Shown piece by piece: positions 21,587-28,804 of a stretch of 64,000 nt of DNA. The stretch is from assembly GCA_019694165.1 (NCBI GenBank), contig JAIBCL010000005.1, positions 1 to 64,000 of the forward strand, read 5' to 3'. This DNA is from Verrucomicrobiaceae bacterium. Lineage in GTDB: Bacteria; Verrucomicrobiota; Verrucomicrobiia; Verrucomicrobiales; Verrucomicrobiaceae. A program made the translations under genes and the position numbers. How positions within the stretch are numbered: position 1 is the first letter of the stretch; every line of letters begins with the position of its first letter. Under the pieces are notes generated by a model. The model did not search any database. It was not told where the DNA came from and saw nothing but the letters and a program-made list of their open reading frames with translations.

Positions 21587-23044
21587 ATGTTCGAACAAGC
21601 ATTCCGCAACATCGACGACGCCCTCCGCAAGGAGGCCGGCTGCGCCACCGAGCTCGACTACGCCGAGCAGACGTCGTGGCTGCTCTTCCTGAAATACCTC
21701 GACGGCCTGGAGCAAGACCGCGCCACCGAAGCCGCGCTCGAAGGCAAGAAATACACCCACCTCCTCGACCCACCCCACCGCTGGGACACTTGGGCTGCTC
21801 CCAAAGGCAACGACGGCCAGCTCGACCACAACGCCGCCCTCTCCGGCGACGACCTCCGCGAGTTCGTTGATCAGAAGCTCTTCCCCTACCTCCAGAAGTT
21901 CAAGGCCCGCGCCTCCGGCCCGAACACCATCGAATACAAGATTGGCGAAATCTTCGGGGAGCTGAAGAACAAGATCACCAGCGGCTACAACCTCCGCGAG
22001 ATCATCGACCACGTGGACGAGCTGCGCTTCCGCTCCCAGACCGAGAAGCACGAGCTGAGCGCGCTCTACGAGGAGAAGATCAAGCGCATGGGCAACGCCG
22101 GGCGCAACGGCGGCGAGTATTACACCCCGCGCCCGCTCATCCGCGCCATGATCCGCGTGGTGAATCCCCGGCTCGGCGAGACCATCTACGACGGCGCGTG
22201 CGGCTCGGCCGGCTTCCTCTGCGAAGCCTTCGATCACCTGCGCGAAGTCAATCCCAAACGCACCACCGCGCAGGACAAGGCCCTCCAGGAGCGCACCTTC
22301 TACGGCAAGGAAAAGAAGTCCCTCGCCTACGTCATCGGCATCATGAACCTGATCCTGCACGGGATCGAGGCGCCGAACATCATCCACACCAACACCCTCA
22401 CCGAGAACCTCGCCGACATTCAGGAAAAGGACCGCTACGACATCGTCCTCGCCAATCCGCCCTTCGGCGGCAAGGAACGCCCCGAGGTGCAGCAGAACTT
22501 CCCCATCCGCACCGGCGCGACGGAGATGCTCTTCCTCCAGCACTTCATCAAGATCCTCCGCGCCGGCGGACGCGGCGGCATCGTCATCAAGAACACCTTC
22601 CTCTCCAACACCGACAACGCCTCCGTGAGCCTGCGCAAGCACCTGCTGGAAAGCTGCAACCTCCACACCGTGCTCGACTGCCCCGGCGGCACGTTCCAAG
22701 GCGCGGGCGTGAAGACCGTGGTGCTCTTCTTCGAGAAAGGCCGCCCCACGCGCAAGGTGTGGTTCTACCAGCTCGACCCCGGCCGCAACCTCGGCAAGAC
22801 CAACCCGCTCAACGACGACGACCTCGCCGAGTTTGTGGAGCTGCAAAAGACCTTCGCCGACTCGCCCAAGAGCTGGAGCTTGGACGCGAAGGACATCGAC
22901 CCCTCCACCTTCGACCTCTCCGTGAAGAACCCCCACGGCGGCGAGACCGTGACCCACCGCAGCCCGCAGGAAATCATGGAAGAAATCGCCGCCCTCGACG
23001 CCGAAAGCGCCGAAGTGCTGGAGAACATCCGCAAGCTGCTATGA
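21587..23044 (+). CDS. hsdM: Type I restriction-modification DNA methyltransferase subunit
   Basis: 485 residues. An N-terminal helical HsdM_N domain (from FRNIDDALRKEAG through about residue 125) is followed by the N6-adenine methylase domain. That domain has GGEYYTPRPLIRAMI near 180, the SAM-binding DGACGSAGF near 203 and catalytic NPPFGG near 290. It methylates adenine within the site chosen by HsdS and forms the M2S core with it. The C-terminus ends AALDAESAEVLENIRKLL; a near copy of this tail recurs 718 bp downstream. The start of the four-helix-bundle gene overlaps the stop (ATGA). Confidence 0.93.
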   Translation: MFEQAFRNIDDALRKEAGCATELDYAEQTSWLLFLKYLDGLEQDRATEAALEGKKYTHLLDPPHRWDTWAAPKGNDGQLDHNAALSGDDLREFVDQKLFPYLQKFKARASGPNTIEYKIGEIFGELKNKITSGYNLREIIDHVDELRFRSQTEKHELSALYEEKIKRMGNAGRNGGEYYTPRPLIRAMIRVVNPRLGETIYDGACGSAGFLCEAFDHLREVNPKRTTAQDKALQERTFYGKEKKSLAYVIGIMNLILHGIEAPNIIHTNTLTENLADIQEKDRYDIVLANPPFGGKERPEVQQNFPIRTGATEMLFLQHFIKILRAGGRGGIVIKNTFLSNTDNASVSLRKHLLESCNLHTVLDCPGGTFQGAGVKTVVLFFEKGRPTRKVWFYQLDPGRNLGKTNPLNDDDLAEFVELQKTFADSPKSWSLDAKDIDPSTFDLSVKNPHGGETVTHRSPQEIMEEIAALDAESAEVLENIRKLL

Positions 23045-23670
23045 AAAACGATGGGAAGAATAGGAAGAATGTGCCGGGCGAAGATCATCCGTCCCCTGAT
23101 TCCCATTCCTCCCATCCCATCATCCCCCCGCGCGGCGATTACCAGACCCTCCTCTCCTACCAGAAAGCCGAGGCCATCTACGACCTCACCTTCCGCTTCG
23201 CGCACAAGTATCTCGCGAAAGGCGACCGCACCGTGGACCAGATGATCCAGTCCGCGCGCTCCGGGAAGCAAAACATCCTCGAAGGCAGCAAGGCCGCCCT
23301 CACCTCCAAGGAAACCGAACTCAAGCTTACCAGCGTGGCCCGCGCCAGCCTGGAGGAACTGCTCGCCGACTACCGCGACTACCTGCGCGTGCGCGACCAT
23401 GCCATTTGGGATAAGGACTCCAAGGAAGCCCAATACGTCCGGCGGCTGGGCCGCAAGACGCCGCACACCTTCGAGCTTTACCGCGAGTTTCTGGAGACCC
23501 GCCCGCCCGAGGTCATCGCCAACATCGCCATCTGCCTGATTCACCAAACCAACTACCTCCTCGACCAGCAACTCCGCGCGCTGGAAAAGGACTTCCTGAA
23601 TCAGGGCGGCCTGCGCGAGCGGATGTTCAAGGCGCGCCTCGCCCACCGCAACCGCCCACCACAAAAATGA
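23041..23670 (+). CDS. Four-helix-bundle protein (S23/IVP-like) inserted in the hsd operon
   Basis: 209 residues. After a low-complexity N-terminus (1-32, Asp/Ser/His/Pro-rich), helices start at YQTLLSYQKAEAIYDLTFRF. The family motif QMIQSARSGKQNILEGSKAA follows near residue 75, with later helices at 100-125 and 160-185. It matches four-helix-bundle proteins related to the 23S-rRNA intervening-sequence protein, with a C-terminal extension. Related bundles include Avd of diversity-generating retroelements, but no reverse transcriptase is present here. ATG overlaps the hsdM stop. A 33-bp direct repeat of the hsdM tail (22987-23019 and 23705-23737) flanks the gene, so it looks like an insertion at the hsdM/hsdS boundary. 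Molecular role unknown. Confidence 0.8.
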   Translation: MKNDGKNRKNVPGEDHPSPDSHSSHPIIPPRGDYQTLLSYQKAEAIYDLTFRFAHKYLAKGDRTVDQMIQSARSGKQNILEGSKAALTSKETELKLTSVARASLEELLADYRDYLRVRDHAIWDKDSKEAQYVRRLGRKTPHTFELYREFLETRPPEVIANIAICLIHQTNYLLDQQLRALEKDFLNQGGLRERMFKARLAHRNRPPQK

Positions 23671-23704
23671 CGACGCTCACTCCCATCATTCCCATCCCTC
23701 CCAC

Positions 23705-23763
23705 CGCCGCCCTCGACGCCGAAAGCGCCGAAGTGCTCACGAACATCAAGGCGCTGCTGAAAT
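23705..23763 (+). repeat. Second copy of the hsdM 3' tail
   Basis: 33 bp at 23705-23737 are identical to 22987-23019 within hsdM. Translated, this copy reads AALDAESAEVLTNIKALLK followed by a stop that overlaps an ATG, i.e. it is a variant hsdM C-terminus. It suggests the original hsdM tail was separated from the gene body by the four-helix-bundle insertion, or that two hsdM alleles recombined. Confidence 0.75.
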
Positions 23764-24053
23764 GAAGAACCGCCCGCCGCGCCCTCACGCCTCCGTCATG
23801 GGACGGAATGGGAATCATGCTTCCCATCCTTCCCCTCTCACCCCTGTCTCCCATCGGGGTGCATTGCGTGCTGGCAGCCTGCGGGAAAGGAGGGCGCTGC
23901 TGAAATGAAGAACCGCCCGCCGCACCCTCACGCCTCCGTCATGGGATGGAATGGGAATCATGCTTCCCCTCATTCCCATCTCACCCATGTCTCCCATCGA
24001 GGGTGGCGGGCGTCGCGCGAGGGCGGCCTGCGGGAAAGGAGGGCGCTGCTGAA
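23751..24053 (+). repeat. Two tandem ~145-bp units between the four-helix-bundle gene and hsdS
   Basis: Units begin at GCGCTGCTGAAATGAAG at 23751 (143 bp) and 23894 (149 bp). A third copy of this junction at 24043 leads into hsdS. The units share ACGCCTCCGTCATGGGA and GGAATGGGAATCATGCTTCC. Each contains an imperfect hairpin (GGAATGGGAA against TTCCCATCC in unit 1) and many ATGGGA/TCCCAT hexamers, also seen at the start of the four-helix-bundle gene. Confidence 0.75.
23762..23908 (+). CDS. Tandem micro-ORF 1 (48 residues)
   Basis: Starts at an ATG overlapping the stop of the duplicated hsdM tail and ends ...LRERRALLK at a TGA that overlaps the next micro-ORF's ATG. The sequence MKNRPPRPHASVMG and a following HPSPLTPVSHRG stretch resemble the start of the four-helix-bundle protein (MKN..., HPSPDSHSSH...RG). 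It may be a decayed N-terminal fragment, or a spacer that keeps ribosomes moving to hsdS. No known function; coding status is uncertain. Confidence 0.35.
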   Translation: MKNRPPRPHASVMGRNGNHASHPSPLTPVSHRGALRAGSLRERRALLK

Positions 24054-24057
24054 ATGA
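23905..24057 (+). CDS. Tandem micro-ORF 2 (50 residues)
   Basis: Second copy of the unit, reading MKNRPPHPHASVMGWNGNH and ending ...LRERRALLK at a TGA overlapping the hsdS ATG. Although the two repeat units differ by 6 bp, both keep an open frame and the ATGA coupling at each end, which argues for selection on translation through the region. No homologue recognised. Confidence 0.35.
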   Translation: MKNRPPHPHASVMGWNGNHASPHSHLTHVSHRGWRASREGGLRERRALLK

Positions 24058-25190
24058 AGAAGGGGTGGACAACGAAACGGCTAGAGGAAGTCTGCGAGAT
24101 TGCTCGCGGTGGTTCGCCGCGGCCAATTGAGAAGTTCCTCACGACTGCACCGGACGGAATCAACTGGGTGAAGATTGGCGACGCTACGGCGAGCGACAAA
24201 TACATCTACAAGACTGAAGAAAAGATTACCTCCGACGGCGTGAAGCGCTCACGCATGGTTCACGACGGCGACTTCCTTCTCTCGAACTCAATGAGCTTCG
24301 GGCGGCCCTACATCATGAAGACGAGCGGCTGCATTCATGACGGCTGGCTCGTTCTGCGGCAGCGGGAGAAGCAGCTTGAGCAGGACTTCCTTTTTTACCT
24401 TCTGAGTTCCGACGAGCTGTTTCAGCAATTCGACCGCCTTGCTGCGGGCAGCACAGTTCGGAACTTGAACATCGGCTTGGTGAAGAGTGTCGAGATTTCG
24501 TTCCCCCCGCTGGCGGAGCAGCAGCGGATCGTGGGGGTGCTGGACGAAGCGTTTGTCGGGCTGGCCACCGCCCAAGCCCACGCCGCCCAGAACCTCCAAA
24601 ACGCCCGCGCCCTCTTTGAAAGCCACCTCCAATCCGTCTTCACCCACCGCGGCAAAGGCTGGGTGGAGAAGACGCTTGGCGAGACGTGCGAGATGTATCA
24701 GCCCAAGACCATCGGGACAAAAGACCTCGTTCCCGACGGCCCGTATCCCGTCTTCGGCGCGAACGGAATAATTGGACGCTACGACAAGTTCAACCACGAA
24801 GAGCCGCAGCTTCTCATCACTTGTCGCGGCGCAACGTGCGGCGCAGTGAACATCTCCGAGCCGAAGTCGTGGATTACCGGAAACGCGATGGTGGTGCGTC
24901 CTCTCGACGCATCGTTGGACCTCGGCTTTCTCGAATACGCTTTTCGCGGCGGCATCGACATTTCCAAAGCCATCACCGGTGCAGCCCAACCCCAAATCAC
25001 GCGCACCAATCTCTCGCCGCTCTTGATTTGCTTCCCGAAGTCCGTCACCGAGCAGAAGCAACTCGCGTCAACCTTCCGAGACCTCGCCGCCGAAACCCAA
25101 CGGCTGACGCGGCTCTACGAGCAAAAGCAGGCGGCGCTGGCGGCGTTGAAAAAGTCGCTCCTGCACCAAGCCTTCACCGGGGAATTGTGA
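24054..25190 (+). CDS. hsdS: Type I restriction-modification specificity subunit
   Basis: 378 residues with the two-fold architecture of HsdS. Target-recognition domain 1 (about 5-150, WTTKRLEEVCEIARGGSPRP) is followed by a conserved helix with PPLAEQQRIVGVLDEA near 160. Domain 2 (about 205-340, WVEKTLGETCEMYQPK) is followed by the second helix with VTEQKQLASTFRDLAAET and the terminal KKSLLHQAFTGEL. Each TRD reads one half of the bipartite DNA site. TRD1 appears to differ fully from TRD2. ATG 24054 overlaps the preceding micro-ORF stop; an in-frame extension to 23946 exists but is repeat-derived. Confidence 0.92.
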   Translation: MKKGWTTKRLEEVCEIARGGSPRPIEKFLTTAPDGINWVKIGDATASDKYIYKTEEKITSDGVKRSRMVHDGDFLLSNSMSFGRPYIMKTSGCIHDGWLVLRQREKQLEQDFLFYLLSSDELFQQFDRLAAGSTVRNLNIGLVKSVEISFPPLAEQQRIVGVLDEAFVGLATAQAHAAQNLQNARALFESHLQSVFTHRGKGWVEKTLGETCEMYQPKTIGTKDLVPDGPYPVFGANGIIGRYDKFNHEEPQLLITCRGATCGAVNISEPKSWITGNAMVVRPLDASLDLGFLEYAFRGGIDISKAITGAAQPQITRTNLSPLLICFPKSVTEQKQLASTFRDLAAETQRLTRLYEQKQAALAALKKSLLHQAFTGEL

Positions 25191-25543
25191 ACGACGAGGA
25201 TTCCCAAGCCCCCGAACTTCCCCACTGGCCCGGCGACTGGCCTGACCGGCGCTTTGTCGATCTCGACAACGTCGGCGACGCAGGGTTCTGGATAGCCGAG
25301 CAACTCCCCGAGCCTGCCGAAGTCCTGTTTGGCGATCCCGAGGATGACCGCCGCATTGCCGAGGAACTTGCCGACGCCTACATCCGCGCCAGCGAGGAAG
25401 ACTACTTCCCGCTTCCAACTGAATTCGGCGCGAGCGAAGAGGAGATGATGGAAGAGGCCGTGGCTGACTTCCTCGGCTTCATCCGCGAGTGGCGCAGAAG
25501 GGCCGTGGCCTCAAATTCTCCCGATGACACTGCCCGTAATTGA
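25187..25543 (+). CDS. Acidic protein coupled to hsdS, unknown function
   Basis: 118 residues from a GTG at 25187 that overlaps the hsdS stop (GTGA). Composition is strongly acidic (about 30 Asp/Glu against about a dozen Lys/Arg) with Trp/Pro-rich LPHWPGDWPDRR near the start and the helix EEEMMEEAVADFLGFIREW near the end. GC-biased third positions support real coding. No family recognised. An acidic partner translated right after hsdS could bind or regulate the R-M complex or mimic DNA, but that is speculation. Confidence 0.6.
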   Translation: MNDEDSQAPELPHWPGDWPDRRFVDLDNVGDAGFWIAEQLPEPAEVLFGDPEDDRRIAEELADAYIRASEEDYFPLPTEFGASEEEMMEEAVADFLGFIREWRRRAVASNSPDDTARN

Positions 25544-25666: not shown

Positions 25667-26401
25667 ATGAGCCATGCTGAAAACCCCACAGGAGACTCTG
25701 CTCGACCGGCGGACATTGAAGTCATTCGCTGGCGTGCGTGGCCGTGTGAAAGCTGCCGTGGCAGCGCAACCGCGCTCAGTTTCCTTGTCCGATGCCTTGG
25801 CTCAAACCCGGAAGTTTCAGCAACAGACCGGAACGAAGTAATCGACTGGTTCAAGAAGTGGGAGGCGGACCGCCTGCTGGATTGGGTAAAGTCATGCGAG
25901 CATACATCGTGGACAGACACACGGCTGCCACGGCTGGCAGAAGGCTCCGAGCATCTGGTGCTCTTCGATGAAGCGACGGCTGAAGTCGTGAAGATCACGC
26001 ATCCGGGCCTCTACGGAGACTACTATGAAGTGACCAGCGGACGCATTTCCCAATTCGACAGCGCGCCGGCAGAATATCTGCTGCGCATGCGCTGGTGGGA
26101 GAAGCTCTTTTCTGCCGCGCTCGATCCGATCGGCATGACGAAGGGCAAACAGATCGTCTCACGCCAGAGGTTCATCAGCGGCGAGCCGCCAGCTCAGTCA
26201 CAAGTGGACCGCTTCCTGGTGGAAGCGGGACTGATCCCGGTAAAGCAATCGTGCTGGCTCTGGAAGAAGGAGGCCGGTGACTCAGAGGTCGAAGTCTGGG
26301 TGGGCGATGCACGTGCCGACAATTTTGTCTCGGCCGGGGGTGAGATCATTCCCATCGACATTCGAATCTGGGGAGTTCCCATTTTGCACAAACCAAGCTA
26401 A
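25667..26401 (+). CDS. Kinase-fold protein resembling the polyvalent-protein kinase family
   Basis: 244 residues. The first ~85 are a variable N-terminus with two Cys (PCESCRG). The rest follows the order of a minimal protein-kinase-like fold: EHLVLFDEATAEVVKITHPG (strand with candidate ATP-binding lysine), a PAEYLLRMRWWEKLF helix, SRQRFISGEPP as a hinge-like strand, then VGDARADNF in the catalytic-loop position and IIPIDIRIW where a metal-binding aspartate would lie. This pattern resembles the Ser/Thr/Tyr kinase domain found in phage/plasmid polyvalent proteins (Pfam Kinase-PolyVal). It lies 12 bp before hsdR within the R-M operon, hinting at an accessory defence or regulatory role. No experimental function known to me. 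Confidence 0.6.
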   Translation: MSHAENPTGDSARPADIEVIRWRAWPCESCRGSATALSFLVRCLGSNPEVSATDRNEVIDWFKKWEADRLLDWVKSCEHTSWTDTRLPRLAEGSEHLVLFDEATAEVVKITHPGLYGDYYEVTSGRISQFDSAPAEYLLRMRWWEKLFSAALDPIGMTKGKQIVSRQRFISGEPPAQSQVDRFLVEAGLIPVKQSCWLWKKEAGDSEVEVWVGDARADNFVSAGGEIIPIDIRIWGVPILHKPS

Positions 26402-26413
26402 CGGTTTCGCCCC

Positions 26414-28804
26414 ATGAACGAAGCCGAGACCCGCGCCGAGTTGATTGATCCCGCCTTGAAAGAGGCGGGCTGGGGCGTCGTGGAGGGCAGCCGTATCCGG
26501 CGGGAGTATCGGATCACCGAGGGGCGCATCGAAGGCCGGGGCCGACGCGGAAAGGCGGACATCGCCGACTACGTGCTGGAATACCGCAACACGAAGCTGG
26601 CGGTGGTGGAGGCGAAGTCGGATCAGGAGGAAGTCTCGGAAGGCGTCGGGCAGGCGAAAGATTACGCGGGCAAGATGGCAATCCGCCACACCTATGCCAC
26701 GAACGGCAAGGGCATTTACGCCATCGACATGCACACCGGCCGGGAGCGTGACGATCTCACGCAGTATCCGACGCCGGATGAATTGTGGCGGATGACCTTC
26801 CCGGCAAAGGATGACTGGCGGGATCGCTTTGCAAACGTGCCGACGCCCGACAAGAGCGGCAGTTGGACGATTCGTTTTTATCAGGAAATCGCGATGAGCC
26901 GCGTGCTGGAGCGCATCGCCGAGGGCGGAAAACGAATGTTGCTCACACTGGCGACGGGCACGGGCAAGACTTCCATCGCGTTTCAAATCGTGTGGAAGCT
27001 GTTTGAAGCCCGCTGGAATCTCACGGGCCAGCCGGGCCGTAGGCCGCGTGTCTTGTTTCTGGCGGATCGGAACACGCTGGCGACACAGGCCTACAACGAC
27101 TTCACCTCGTTCAGCGCGTTTGCCGAGGACGCGCTGGTCCGCGTGAAGCCGGAGGAGATTCGCAAGAAGGGCAAGGTGCCAAAGAATGCGAATGTGTTCT
27201 TCACGATCTTCCAGACGTTCATGAGCGGGCCGCCGAAGGAAGACGGTTCGCCATCACCCTACTTCGGCGAATATCCGCCGGACTTCTTTGACTTCATCAT
27301 CATCGACGAGTGCCATCGCGGCGGCGCGAATGACGAGAGCAACTGGCGCGGCATCATGGAATACTTCGCACCTGCCGTGCAGCTCGGCCTCACCGCCACG
27401 CCGAAGCGCAGGGACAACGTGGACACCTACGCCTACTTCGGCGAGCCGCTGTATGTCTATTCGCTCAAGGACGGCATCAATGACGGCTTCCTCACGCCTT
27501 TCCGAGTGAAGCAGATCGCTTCGACGATCGACTATTACACTTACACATCCGATGACACGGTGATCGAGGGTGAGATCGAAGCGGGCAGGCTCTACGAGGA
27601 GGCGGACTTCAATCGCAACATCGAAATCCGCGAGCGCGAAAAGAAGCGGGTGGAAATCTTCATGGGCCAGATCGACCAGCGGGAGAAGACGCTCGTCTTC
27701 TGCGCCAATCAATCGCACGCTCTGCTGGTCCGGGACCTGATCAACCAGACGAAGACCAGCCCCGATCCGAACTACTGCCACCGCGTGACGGCTGACGACG
27801 GCGAACTCGGCGAGCAGCATCTGCGGGACTTCCAGGACAACGAGAAGAGCATCCCCACCATTCTCACCACCTCGCAGAAGCTCAGCACGGGCGTGGATGC
27901 GCGAAACATCCGCAACATCGTGCTGATGCGGCCGGTGAATTCGATGATCGAATTCAAGCAGATCATTGGACGCGGCACCCGGCTTTTTGAGGGGAAATAC
28001 TATTTCACGATCTACGACTTCGTGAAGGCGCACGAGCACTTCCACGATGAGGAATGGGACGGCCCGCCGTCTGAACCCGAGCTATGCAAAAAGTGCGGCC
28101 AGTATCCATGCGTCTGCGAGACAAAGCCTCTCCCACCTTGCACCGAATGCGGCGAGCGCCCTTGTGTCTGCCCATGCCCGAAGTGTGGTCGCCGCCCTTG
28201 CGAGTGCGAGCGCCCCAAGAAGGCCAAGGTGAAGCTCGCCGATGGCAAGGAGCGCACGATCCAGCACATGATGATGACCACCTTCTGGCATCCCGACGGC
28301 ACGCCGATGAGTGCGCAGGAGTTTATCGAAATGCTGTATGGCAAGATGCCAGAGTTCTTCCACGACGAAGCGGAACTCCGCACGCTTTGGAGCCAGCCTG
28401 ACACGCGCAAGAAGCTGCTCGACGGCCTCGCGGAGAAAGGCTTTGGCAAACCGCAGCTCGCCGAGATGCAAAAGGCCATCGATGCCACGAACAGCGATCT
28501 TTTCGACGTGCTCGCTTATGTCGCTTACTCGCTGCCGCCGCTCACGCGCGAGCAGCGCGCGGCGAAGGCCAAGGTGGAGATCAGCACGCACTTCAACAGC
28601 AAACAGCAGGTCTTCCTCGACTTTGTGATCTCGCATTATGTCACCGAAGGCGTGCAGGAACTGGATCAGGAACAGCTCTCGCCACTCCTGCGGCTGCGGT
28701 ATCACAACTCCATCGCCGACGCCGTGGCAGACCTCGGCAAGCCCGACGAGATCGGCAGGATGTTCTCAGGCTTCCAGCGGTATCTCTATCAGGGTGCGGC
28801 GTGA
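26414..28804 (+). CDS. hsdR: Type I restriction endonuclease/translocase subunit (EcoEI-type)
   Basis: 796 residues. The N-terminal nuclease domain has the core motif VVEAKSDQEEV near residue 65. A superfamily 2 helicase motor follows with Walker A ATGTGKT near 182, DECHRGG near 300, LGLTATPKRRDN near 325 and the late motif IEFKQIIGRGTR near 515. A cysteine-rich insert (558-598) holds three CxxCGxxPCxC-type modules, 12 cysteines in 41 residues. The C-terminal helical domain binds the methylase core. It translocates and cuts unmodified DNA. It begins 12 bp after the kinase-like gene without a clear Shine-Dalgarno, so it is probably expressed from the same transcript. Confidence 0.93.
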   Translation: MNEAETRAELIDPALKEAGWGVVEGSRIRREYRITEGRIEGRGRRGKADIADYVLEYRNTKLAVVEAKSDQEEVSEGVGQAKDYAGKMAIRHTYATNGKGIYAIDMHTGRERDDLTQYPTPDELWRMTFPAKDDWRDRFANVPTPDKSGSWTIRFYQEIAMSRVLERIAEGGKRMLLTLATGTGKTSIAFQIVWKLFEARWNLTGQPGRRPRVLFLADRNTLATQAYNDFTSFSAFAEDALVRVKPEEIRKKGKVPKNANVFFTIFQTFMSGPPKEDGSPSPYFGEYPPDFFDFIIIDECHRGGANDESNWRGIMEYFAPAVQLGLTATPKRRDNVDTYAYFGEPLYVYSLKDGINDGFLTPFRVKQIASTIDYYTYTSDDTVIEGEIEAGRLYEEADFNRNIEIREREKKRVEIFMGQIDQREKTLVFCANQSHALLVRDLINQTKTSPDPNYCHRVTADDGELGEQHLRDFQDNEKSIPTILTTSQKLSTGVDARNIRNIVLMRPVNSMIEFKQIIGRGTRLFEGKYYFTIYDFVKAHEHFHDEEWDGPPSEPELCKKCGQYPCVCETKPLPPCTECGERPCVCPCPKCGRRPCECERPKKAKVKLADGKERTIQHMMMTTFWHPDGTPMSAQEFIEMLYGKMPEFFHDEAELRTLWSQPDTRKKLLDGLAEKGFGKPQLAEMQKAIDATNSDLFDVLAYVAYSLPPLTREQRAAKAKVEISTHFNSKQQVFLDFVISHYVTEGVQELDQEQLSPLLRLRYHNSIADAVADLGKPDEIGRMFSGFQRYLYQGAA

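What the first reader, a model, noticed from the sequence alone, without database searches (positions are those of the whole stretch)
25667..26401. Kinase-fold protein embedded between hsdS and hsdR
The protein has an ordered set of kinase-like motifs (lysine strand, VGDARADNF, IIPIDI) like the polyvalent-protein kinase family. It sits 12 bp before hsdR in the R-M operon. Kinase-like proteins in defence loci can modify host or phage targets. Here one could license or restrain the restriction subunit.
Basis: partly seen in the sequence, partly recalled or inferred. Interest (0 to 1): 0.65.

Follow-up and report, generated by a model that had tools for sequence, protein, structure and literature searches.

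The report
Mini-kinase cargo in restriction operon
A small kinase-like protein, missing the usual second half of the kinase fold, rides as an exchangeable passenger gene between two genes of a bacterial DNA-restriction operon, and most likely serves as a back-up antiviral weapon rather than as a switch for the restriction enzyme.

Summary
ORF 25667-26401 (244 aa) ends 12 nt before hsdR in an hsdM-hsdS-hsdR operon (EcoAI-type HsdR). It is a divergent relative of the Kinase-PolyVal family: 21.8 bits, below Pfam's 27-bit cut-off, but HHalign 99.6% against other homologs, most of which pass it. Lys109, Glu136, Asp214, Asn219, Asp231 and two family signature residues (Glu95, Gln167) are invariant in all homologs aligned. 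The AlphaFold model is kinase-like (pLDDT 79); the best structural matches are kinases, including C-lobe-less mini-kinases. Orthologs are under purifying selection (dN/dS about 0.2).

Eight of nine intact orthologs lie in hsd operons; the ninth sits beside nSTAND and Abi genes. The slot is a cargo bay: 22 of 22 related operons carry 0.65-6.2 kb there, often Fic, DarTG, MNT, RhuM, nuclease or ATPase genes. Kinase presence is scattered over the hsdR tree. So it is probably an embedded, exchangeable back-up effector, not an obligate HsdR regulator. Kinase activity, trigger and target are inferred.

Bonus: ~100-nt hsdS-tail copies between stacked cargo genes often form 36-codon ORFs beginning like hsdR. 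They look like scars of unequal crossover that stacks cargo.

The parts
21587..23044 (+). hsdM, type I DNA methyltransferase subunit
   Evidence: Pfam N6_Mtase 1.8e-60, HsdM_N; PADLOC MTase_I 2.4e-161
23041..23670 (+). cargo gene in the hsdM-hsdS slot: four-helix-bundle protein with 4-helix suffix; its ATG overlaps the hsdM stop (ATGA)
   Evidence: NCBIfam TIGR04258 83.9 bits, TIGR02436 26.8 bits; sequence
23667..23765 (+). 32-codon mini-ORF whose 3' half copies the hsdM 3' end (about 54 nt); ATG overlaps the stop of the four-helix gene; probable recombination scar
   Evidence: repeat D5; translation read from the sequence printed; tblastn copy AALDAESAEVLTNIKALL; equivalent 57-nt copy in L064 at 100%
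23750..24061 (+). degenerate tandem repeats (110 nt, 94%; 57 nt, 86%) just upstream of hsdS
   Evidence: repeats D2 and D3
24054..25190 (+). hsdS, specificity subunit (open frame from 23946; likely start ATG 24054)
   Evidence: Pfam Methylase_S 7e-32; PADLOC Specificity_I
25187..25543 (+). 118-aa acidic ORF of unknown function; GTG overlaps the hsdS stop; not found in the other loci searched
   Evidence: tblastn against loci; no Pfam hit above cut-off and no NCBIfam hit
25667..26401 (+). the finding: 244-aa C-lobe-less kinase-like protein, divergent relative of Kinase-PolyVal; K109, E136, D214, N219, D231; family signatures E95 and Q167; subfamily-specific N-terminal region with invariant C27xxC30 and C77xH79
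26414..28804 (+). hsdR, EcoAI/FtnUII-type restriction subunit
   Evidence: NCBIfam NF046051 806 bits, over cut-off 550; Pfam ResIII, EcoEI_R_C

Best explanation
The gene encodes a stripped-down protein kinase: an N-lobe plus catalytic core that ends about 13 residues after the metal-binding Asp of the 'DFG' position, with no helical C-lobe. It is a divergent relative of the Kinase-PolyVal family. It is one of many exchangeable cargo genes that occupy the hsdS-hsdR slot of EcoAI-type type I restriction-modification operons in Verrucomicrobiota. It is most likely an accessory (back-up) effector. Made together with the restriction system from the same operon, it would phosphorylate a host or phage protein and so stop an infection that escapes restriction, as other embedded effectors are thought to do. 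Lacking a C-lobe and activation segment, it probably depends on a partner for activation or substrate docking. Its own N-terminal region with an invariant CxxC...CxH, possibly metal-binding, may recruit that partner. Shown here: homology, invariant catalytic residues, kinase-like predicted fold, purifying selection, recurrent placement in the slot, exchangeability. Inferred: catalytic activity, partner, trigger, target and antiviral effect.
For: Kinase-PolyVal is the only Pfam hit. HHalign of nine orthologs against eight homologs from the same group of genomes gives 99.6%, E=1.2e-24, over 191 columns; four of the five stand-alone homologs tested pass Pfam's cut-off, as does the ABC-fused one. 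Invariant residues. AF2 mean pLDDT 78.8, pTM 0.77, with secondary-structure order b3(K109)-aC(E136)-b4-b5(Q167)-aD-catalytic loop(D214, N219)-b7-b8-D231. VIA-align: nearly all of the 50 listed rows are kinase-fold entries (top Z 6.9), and the C-lobe-less bacterial mini-kinases OspG and NleH align over residues 82-244. BFVD: phage polyvalent proteins at E=1.2e-6 and 2.1e-4. NG86 dN/dS 0.17-0.33 in all ortholog pairs. Eight of nine intact orthologs are in hsd operons. All 22 related operons have the slot filled, with Fic, DarT plus macro, MNT, RhuM, NucS-like, HNH, AAA_21 plus DUF4276 and others. Presence is scattered on the hsdR tree. Precedents: DarTG2 embedded between hsdS and hsdR, with antiphage activity of that island (PMC12255303); PrrC in a type I locus (PMC12707154).
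Against: No activity, phosphorylation target or defence phenotype is known for this protein, and none was found in the papers searched for the parent family. The profile score is below Pfam's curated cut-off. Foldseek against PDB gave no match with E<=0.001, and VIA Z scores (6.9 at best) are in the range where a common arrangement can match. Some cargo in the slot is not obviously defensive (UvdE-like, an epimerase, DUF429). The kinase could have a housekeeping or signalling role.
Confidence: 0.55

Rival explanations
1. It regulates the restriction enzyme itself: it phosphorylates HsdR, HsdM or HsdS to license or restrain cleavage.
For: Eight of nine orthologs sit in hsd operons, and the gene ends 12 nt before hsdR in the window, with the same 12-nt spacing in L020.
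Against: HsdR proteins that are 64-78% identical occur without it, with other cargo in the same place. Presence is scattered on the hsdR tree. One ortholog has no hsd genes nearby. In L017, L019 and L093 another gene, Fic, lies downstream of the kinase gene, before hsdR where hsdR is visible.
Confidence: 0.12
2. It is a domesticated phage or conjugative-element gene (polyvalent-protein kinase) used as an anti-restriction or takeover factor, carried in the operon by chance of recombination.
For: [quoted passage not shown] Foldseek BFVD hits are phage polyvalent proteins. Some homologs lie in open frames of 1000-2300 aa.
Against: Orthologs are conserved inside restriction operons and a likely defence island, not in prophages. 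Purifying selection in that context argues for a host function.
Confidence: 0.1
3. It is the toxin of a toxin-antitoxin pair whose antitoxin is the neighbouring 118-aa acidic ORF (25187-25543).
For: The small acidic ORF is directly upstream and overlaps the hsdS stop; toxin-antitoxin pairs are common cargo of this slot.
Against: The 118-aa ORF was found only in the window's own locus; other orthologs follow hsdS directly or follow unrelated genes such as a macro-domain gene.
Confidence: 0.06
4. It is a nucleotide-binding pseudokinase or a kinase-fold enzyme of other chemistry (AMPylation, or small-molecule or nucleic-acid phosphorylation).
For: Kinase-fold proteins without a C-lobe are atypical; VIA-align's top row is YihE and several rows are small-molecule phosphotransferases, with Z close to those of protein kinases. 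No conserved HRD-type His precedes D214.
Against: The full set of Lys, Glu, Asp, Asn and Asp is invariant in 14 homologs, unlike typical pseudokinases; C-lobe-less mini-kinases also match structurally.
Confidence: 0.12

Closest known systems
Kinase-PolyVal (Pfam PF18762; Iyer et al. 2017, PMC5512222)
   Same: Loss of the whole C-terminal subdomain, retained ATP and phosphotransfer residues, the distinctive Glu before strand 2 (E95) and Gln in the last N-lobe strand (Q167); found in Verrucomicrobiota
   Different: Scores below Pfam's cut-off; has its own ~80-aa N-terminal region with invariant CxxC and CxH; stands alone inside a restriction operon instead of in a multidomain phage or conjugative protein
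Embedded defence genes of type I R-M operons: DarTG2 between hsdS and hsdR (PMC12255303), PrrC in ecoprrI (PMC12707154)
   Same: A separate effector gene inside an hsd operon, in the hsdS-hsdR slot for DarTG2
   Different: The embedded gene here is a kinase-like protein, with no cognate antitoxin conserved next to it; no phenotype known
OspG and NleH bacterial effector mini-kinases (PDB 4q5h, 4lrk)
   Same: Compact kinase without the C-lobe; align to model residues 82-243 at Z 5.6-5.9
   Different: 14-20% identity and a Z in the common-arrangement range; those are injected effectors with other biology; homology beyond the kinase fold not shown
PglW of BREX type 2 and kinase-fused DndF (PMC12839542, PMC10853773)
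   Same: Ser/Thr/Tyr kinase domains as proposed co-effectors of DNA-modification-based defence systems
   Different: Those kinase domains are fused to larger sensor proteins, not stand-alone mini-kinases

Membership tests
Kinase-PolyVal (PF18762) | Whole-protein score above Pfam's curated cut-off (27 bits) | tested here: not met
   21.8 bits for the window protein; 14.4-21.6 bits for five orthologs. Filed therefore as a divergent relative, not as a cut-off member
Kinase-PolyVal (PF18762) | Profile similarity to bona fide members over the whole domain | tested here: met
   hhalign A3 vs A4 99.6%, E=1.2e-24, 191 columns; four of five stand-alone homologs tested, and the ABC-fused one, pass the cut-off
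Kinase-PolyVal (PF18762) | ATP-binding and phosphotransfer residues intact (Lys, Glu, Asp, Asn, Asp) | tested here: met
   K109, E136, D214, N219, D231 invariant in 14 homologs and nine orthologs
[quoted passage not shown]
   E95 and Q167 invariant; strands 96-101 and 163-168 in the model
[quoted passage not shown]
   Protein ends 13 residues after D231; last element is strand 233-238
Kinase-PolyVal (PF18762) | Insert between the conserved His and Asp of the catalytic loop | tested here: inconclusive
   Residues 168-213 hold a helix and strands, but no conserved His is seen in A1/A3, so the insert cannot be measured
Protein kinase (activity) | Transfer of phosphate to a protein | not testable with these tools
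   needs biochemistry
Embedded defence gene of a type I R-M operon | Lies inside the hsd operon, same strand, in a slot used by other defence genes | tested here: met
Embedded defence gene of a type I R-M operon | Antiviral activity | not testable with these tools
   needs phage assays
R-M guardian (PrrC-like) | Held inactive by the R-M complex and released by anti-restriction proteins | not testable with these tools
   no interaction data; PrrC precedent in PMC12707154
HsdR-regulating kinase | Constant partner of a particular hsdR lineage | tested here: not met
   Scattered on the hsdR tree, five changes for seven carriers; one ortholog without hsd genes

The most novel reading that the evidence does not exclude
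The mini-kinase is a restriction-modification guardian: it docks on the HsdMSR complex, which supplies the missing C-lobe function or holds it inactive, and when a phage anti-restriction protein disables the complex the kinase is released and shuts the cell down by phosphorylation. It would be the kinase counterpart of PrrC, and a first tested function for a polyvalent-type kinase.
Probability: 0.18. Interest if true: 0.75.

Novelty: new variant of a known kind. Interest (0 to 1): 0.5.

Why it matters
A kinase-like protein recurrently embedded in type I restriction operons gives the polyvalent-kinase family, whose biological role is only predicted, a defence context in which it can be tested. 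The survey also suggests how such operons accumulate passenger genes: recombination between the start of hsdR and the tail of hsdS stacks one embedded gene behind another and keeps the reading frames chained by start/stop overlaps. If confirmed, that would explain why this junction is a hotspot for embedded defence genes and would make the scars usable as markers for finding new ones.

Tried and rejected
No hit in NCBIfam, PHROGs, PADLOC or PDB by sequence. Foldseek against PDB gave nothing at E<=0.001, so the fold assignment rests on the VIA second look, the viral library, sequence motifs and HHalign together. Obligate HsdR regulator: considered and disfavoured (and the survey). Toxin-antitoxin pair with the 118-aa ORF: disfavoured, as that ORF is not conserved. 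hsdS-tail copies as remnants of whole duplicated hsdS genes: disfavoured, because most copies share one 5' edge (about 98 nt from the end) and 11 of 24 have an ATG exactly 36 codons before the stop (0 of 34 full hsdS genes). Mini-ORFs as strongly selected peptides: not supported, pN/pS against the operon's own hsdS tail is 0.69. Catalytic-residue distances could not be measured because model coordinates are not returned. A literature search for an unequal-crossover mechanism in hsd operons returned nothing. The preprint on genetically embedded defences (Payne et al. 2024, cited in PMC12255303) is not held, so whether it lists this gene is unchecked.

Full report
OBSERVATION. The ORF at 25667-26401 (+) encodes 244 residues (P0001) and its stop codon ends 12 nt before the hsdR start at 26414. 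Its neighbours are a type I restriction-modification operon: hsdM 21587-23044, hsdS about 24054-25190, hsdR 26414-28804. HsdR is of the EcoAI/FtnUII type (NF046051, 806 bits). A four-helix-bundle gene sits between hsdM and hsdS, and a 118-aa acidic ORF (25187-25543) lies between hsdS and the kinase gene. The best-matching relatives are Verrucomicrobiota genomes (Verrucomicrobiaceae, Akkermansiaceae).

FAMILY. Pfam gives a single hit, Kinase-PolyVal PF18762, at 21.8 bits, below its cut-off of 27. NCBIfam, PHROGs, PADLOC and PDB sequences give none. Homologs, mostly at 22-36% identity, were found in half of the 96 related genomes. In an alignment of 14 sequences E95, H96, K109, E136, Q167, D214, N219 and D231, among others, are invariant. 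These match the kinase pattern Lys (strand 3), Glu (helix C), Asp-x4-Asn (catalytic loop) and Asp (metal). They also match two special marks that Iyer et al. (PMC5512222) give for the polyvalent kinases: a Glu before strand 2 and a Gln in the last N-lobe strand, with loss of the whole C-terminal subdomain. HHalign of nine orthologs (A3) against eight homologs (A4) gives 99.6%, E=1.2e-24. Four of the five stand-alone homologs tested pass the Pfam cut-off, as does the ABC-fused homolog of the same genome. I therefore call it a divergent relative of Kinase-PolyVal, not a cut-off member.

STRUCTURE. AlphaFold2 on the 14-row alignment gives pLDDT 78.8 and pTM 0.77, with the order of elements expected of a kinase core and nothing after a last strand at 233-238. 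Foldseek finds no PDB match at E<=0.001. In the VIA second look nearly all of the 50 listed rows are kinase-fold entries, with Z up to 6.9, a level at which a common arrangement can match. Among them OspG and NleH, two mini-kinases without a C-lobe (own knowledge), align over residues 82-243. In the viral library the top two hits are phage polyvalent proteins, one of them named as a polyvalent kinase. The first 80 residues are specific to this subfamily and carry invariant C27xxC30 and C77xH79, a possible metal site (inference).

SELECTION AND DISTRIBUTION. Nine intact orthologs are known: the window, and L016-L021, L093 and L104 at 59-67% identity to it. A frameshifted copy is in L009/L088. 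NG86 dN/dS among the seven tested is 0.17-0.33. Eight of the nine are in hsd operons. In L016 the contig begins just upstream of the gene, so hsdS is not visible; in L093 hsdR was not seen in the fetched stretch. The ninth (L021/L089) is in a neighbourhood with a metallophosphatase-nSTAND protein and an Abi_2 protein, a likely defence island.

THE SLOT. I surveyed operons whose HsdR is 64-80% identical to the window's. In all 22 operons where both borders were visible, the hsdS-hsdR interval was 647 to 6154 nt long; the window's is 1223 nt. The cargo is diverse: Fic; DarT with a macro-domain partner, plus IrrE and PIN-like genes; RhuM; GIY-YIG-like/DUF4357; NucS-like and HNH nucleases; MNT nucleotidyltransferase with its substrate-binding partner; AAA_21 with DUF4276; STAS/HATPase; DUF6932; DUF429; four-helix proteins (GIY-YIG, PIN, UvdE and epimerase names are my reading of the sequences). 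Kinase orthologs occur alone (L016; the window apart from the small ORF), with Fic (L017, L019, L093), with a macro-domain gene (L020), or with RhuM and MNT remnants (L018). On a tree of 33 HsdR sequences the seven carriers need five changes (shuffles: mean 6.4, 9% at or below 5), so the kinase is not tied to one HsdR lineage. This matches what others have seen: DarTG2 lies between hsdS and hsdR in enteropathogenic E. coli, and the authors call the site a potential recombination hotspot (PMC12255303).

HOW IT MOST LIKELY WORKS. Best reading: an embedded back-up effector. Co-expressed with the restriction system, it would phosphorylate a host or phage protein once restriction fails. Because the C-lobe, with its activation segment and substrate platform, is missing, a partner is probably needed. 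Shown: homology, intact active-site residues, fold prediction, selection, recurrent placement, exchangeability. Inferred: activity, partner, trigger, target. The strongest novel version is a PrrC-like guardian that senses loss of the R-M complex (precedent in PMC12707154); nothing here tests that.

BONUS FINDING: CARGO-STACKING SCARS. Between stacked cargo genes I found copies of the last ~100 nt of hsdS, in L017, L019, L072, L075, L077, L079, L081 and others, 78-97% identical to the operon's own hsdS and in most cases starting 94-105 nt from its end. Across the fetched loci 24 extra copies were found; 11 have an ATG exactly 36 codons before the stop, against 0 of 34 full hsdS genes. The resulting 36-aa ORFs (for example MNAAETQRLTRLYEQKQAALAALKKSLLHQAFNGEL) begin with ATGAAC in eight of eleven cases, like hsdR (ATGAACGAAGCCGAAACC..., MNEAET). 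The join falls in a stretch, GCCGAAACC(C), shared by the hsdR head and the hsdS tail. The spacing from the kinase stop codon to the next ATG is 12 nt whether that ATG belongs to hsdR (window, L020) or to a mini-ORF (L017, L093). In L018 the kinase gene is followed by a partial hsdR head, and in L074 a longer hsdR head is joined to a shorter hsdS tail. L017 and L019 are 98.4% identical from about 97 nt before the hsdS end through kinase, scar, Fic and hsdR, but have different hsdS upstream, so a natural breakpoint falls at the same spot. Tail copies occur in five of ten intervals above 1.9 kb and none of twelve below 1.5 kb. The simplest explanation is unequal crossover between the hsdR head of one operon copy and the hsdS tail of another, which stacks cargo while keeping stop/start overlaps. 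pN/pS of the mini-ORFs against the operon's own tail is 0.69, so they look like scars or translational bridges more than strongly selected peptides. The window shows the same kind of trace in its hsdM-hsdS slot: a 32-codon ORF (23667-23765) with a copy of the hsdM tail.

VERDICT. Observation confirmed; interpretation partly right (kinase family yes, licensing of HsdR unlikely). A new variant of a known kind: a polyvalent-type mini-kinase as embedded cargo of type I restriction operons.

Noticed in passing
L081, L079, L077, L072, L017, L093, L097, L094, L098, L099: About 100-nt copies of the hsdS 3' end punctuate stacked cargo genes; 11 of 24 form 36-codon ORFs, most of which begin like hsdR. 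Probable scars of unequal crossover between hsdR head and hsdS tail that stacks embedded genes.
   Followed up: partly
L017 from 785 and L019 from 1423: The two operons are 98.4% identical from the hsdS tail through kinase, scar, Fic and hsdR, but carry different hsdS upstream: a specificity swap with its breakpoint at the same tail position.
   Followed up: partly
window 23667-24061: Copy of the hsdM 3' end in a 32-codon ORF after the four-helix gene, followed by 94% identical tandem repeats up to the hsdS start; an equivalent hsdM-tail copy is in L064.
   Followed up: partly
L090:4290-5996 (window's own genome, G000:C20): A Kinase-PolyVal domain (E=6e-14) in one open frame C-terminal to an oligopeptide ABC-transporter ATPase; unusual fusion.
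   Followed up: no
L021/L089, 189-9452: The kinase ortholog outside an hsd operon lies near a metallophosphatase-nSTAND protein (955 aa) and an Abi_2 protein: likely defence island.
   Followed up: no
window 25187-25543: 118-aa acidic ORF overlapping the hsdS stop, no family hit above cut-off, not seen in the other loci searched.
   Followed up: partly
L064:2514-3539 and L101:3804-4850: A 341-348 aa protein without any Pfam hit in L064, 87% identical between two operons, sits next to hsdS or an hsdS-tail copy: candidate uncharacterised embedded gene.
   Followed up: no
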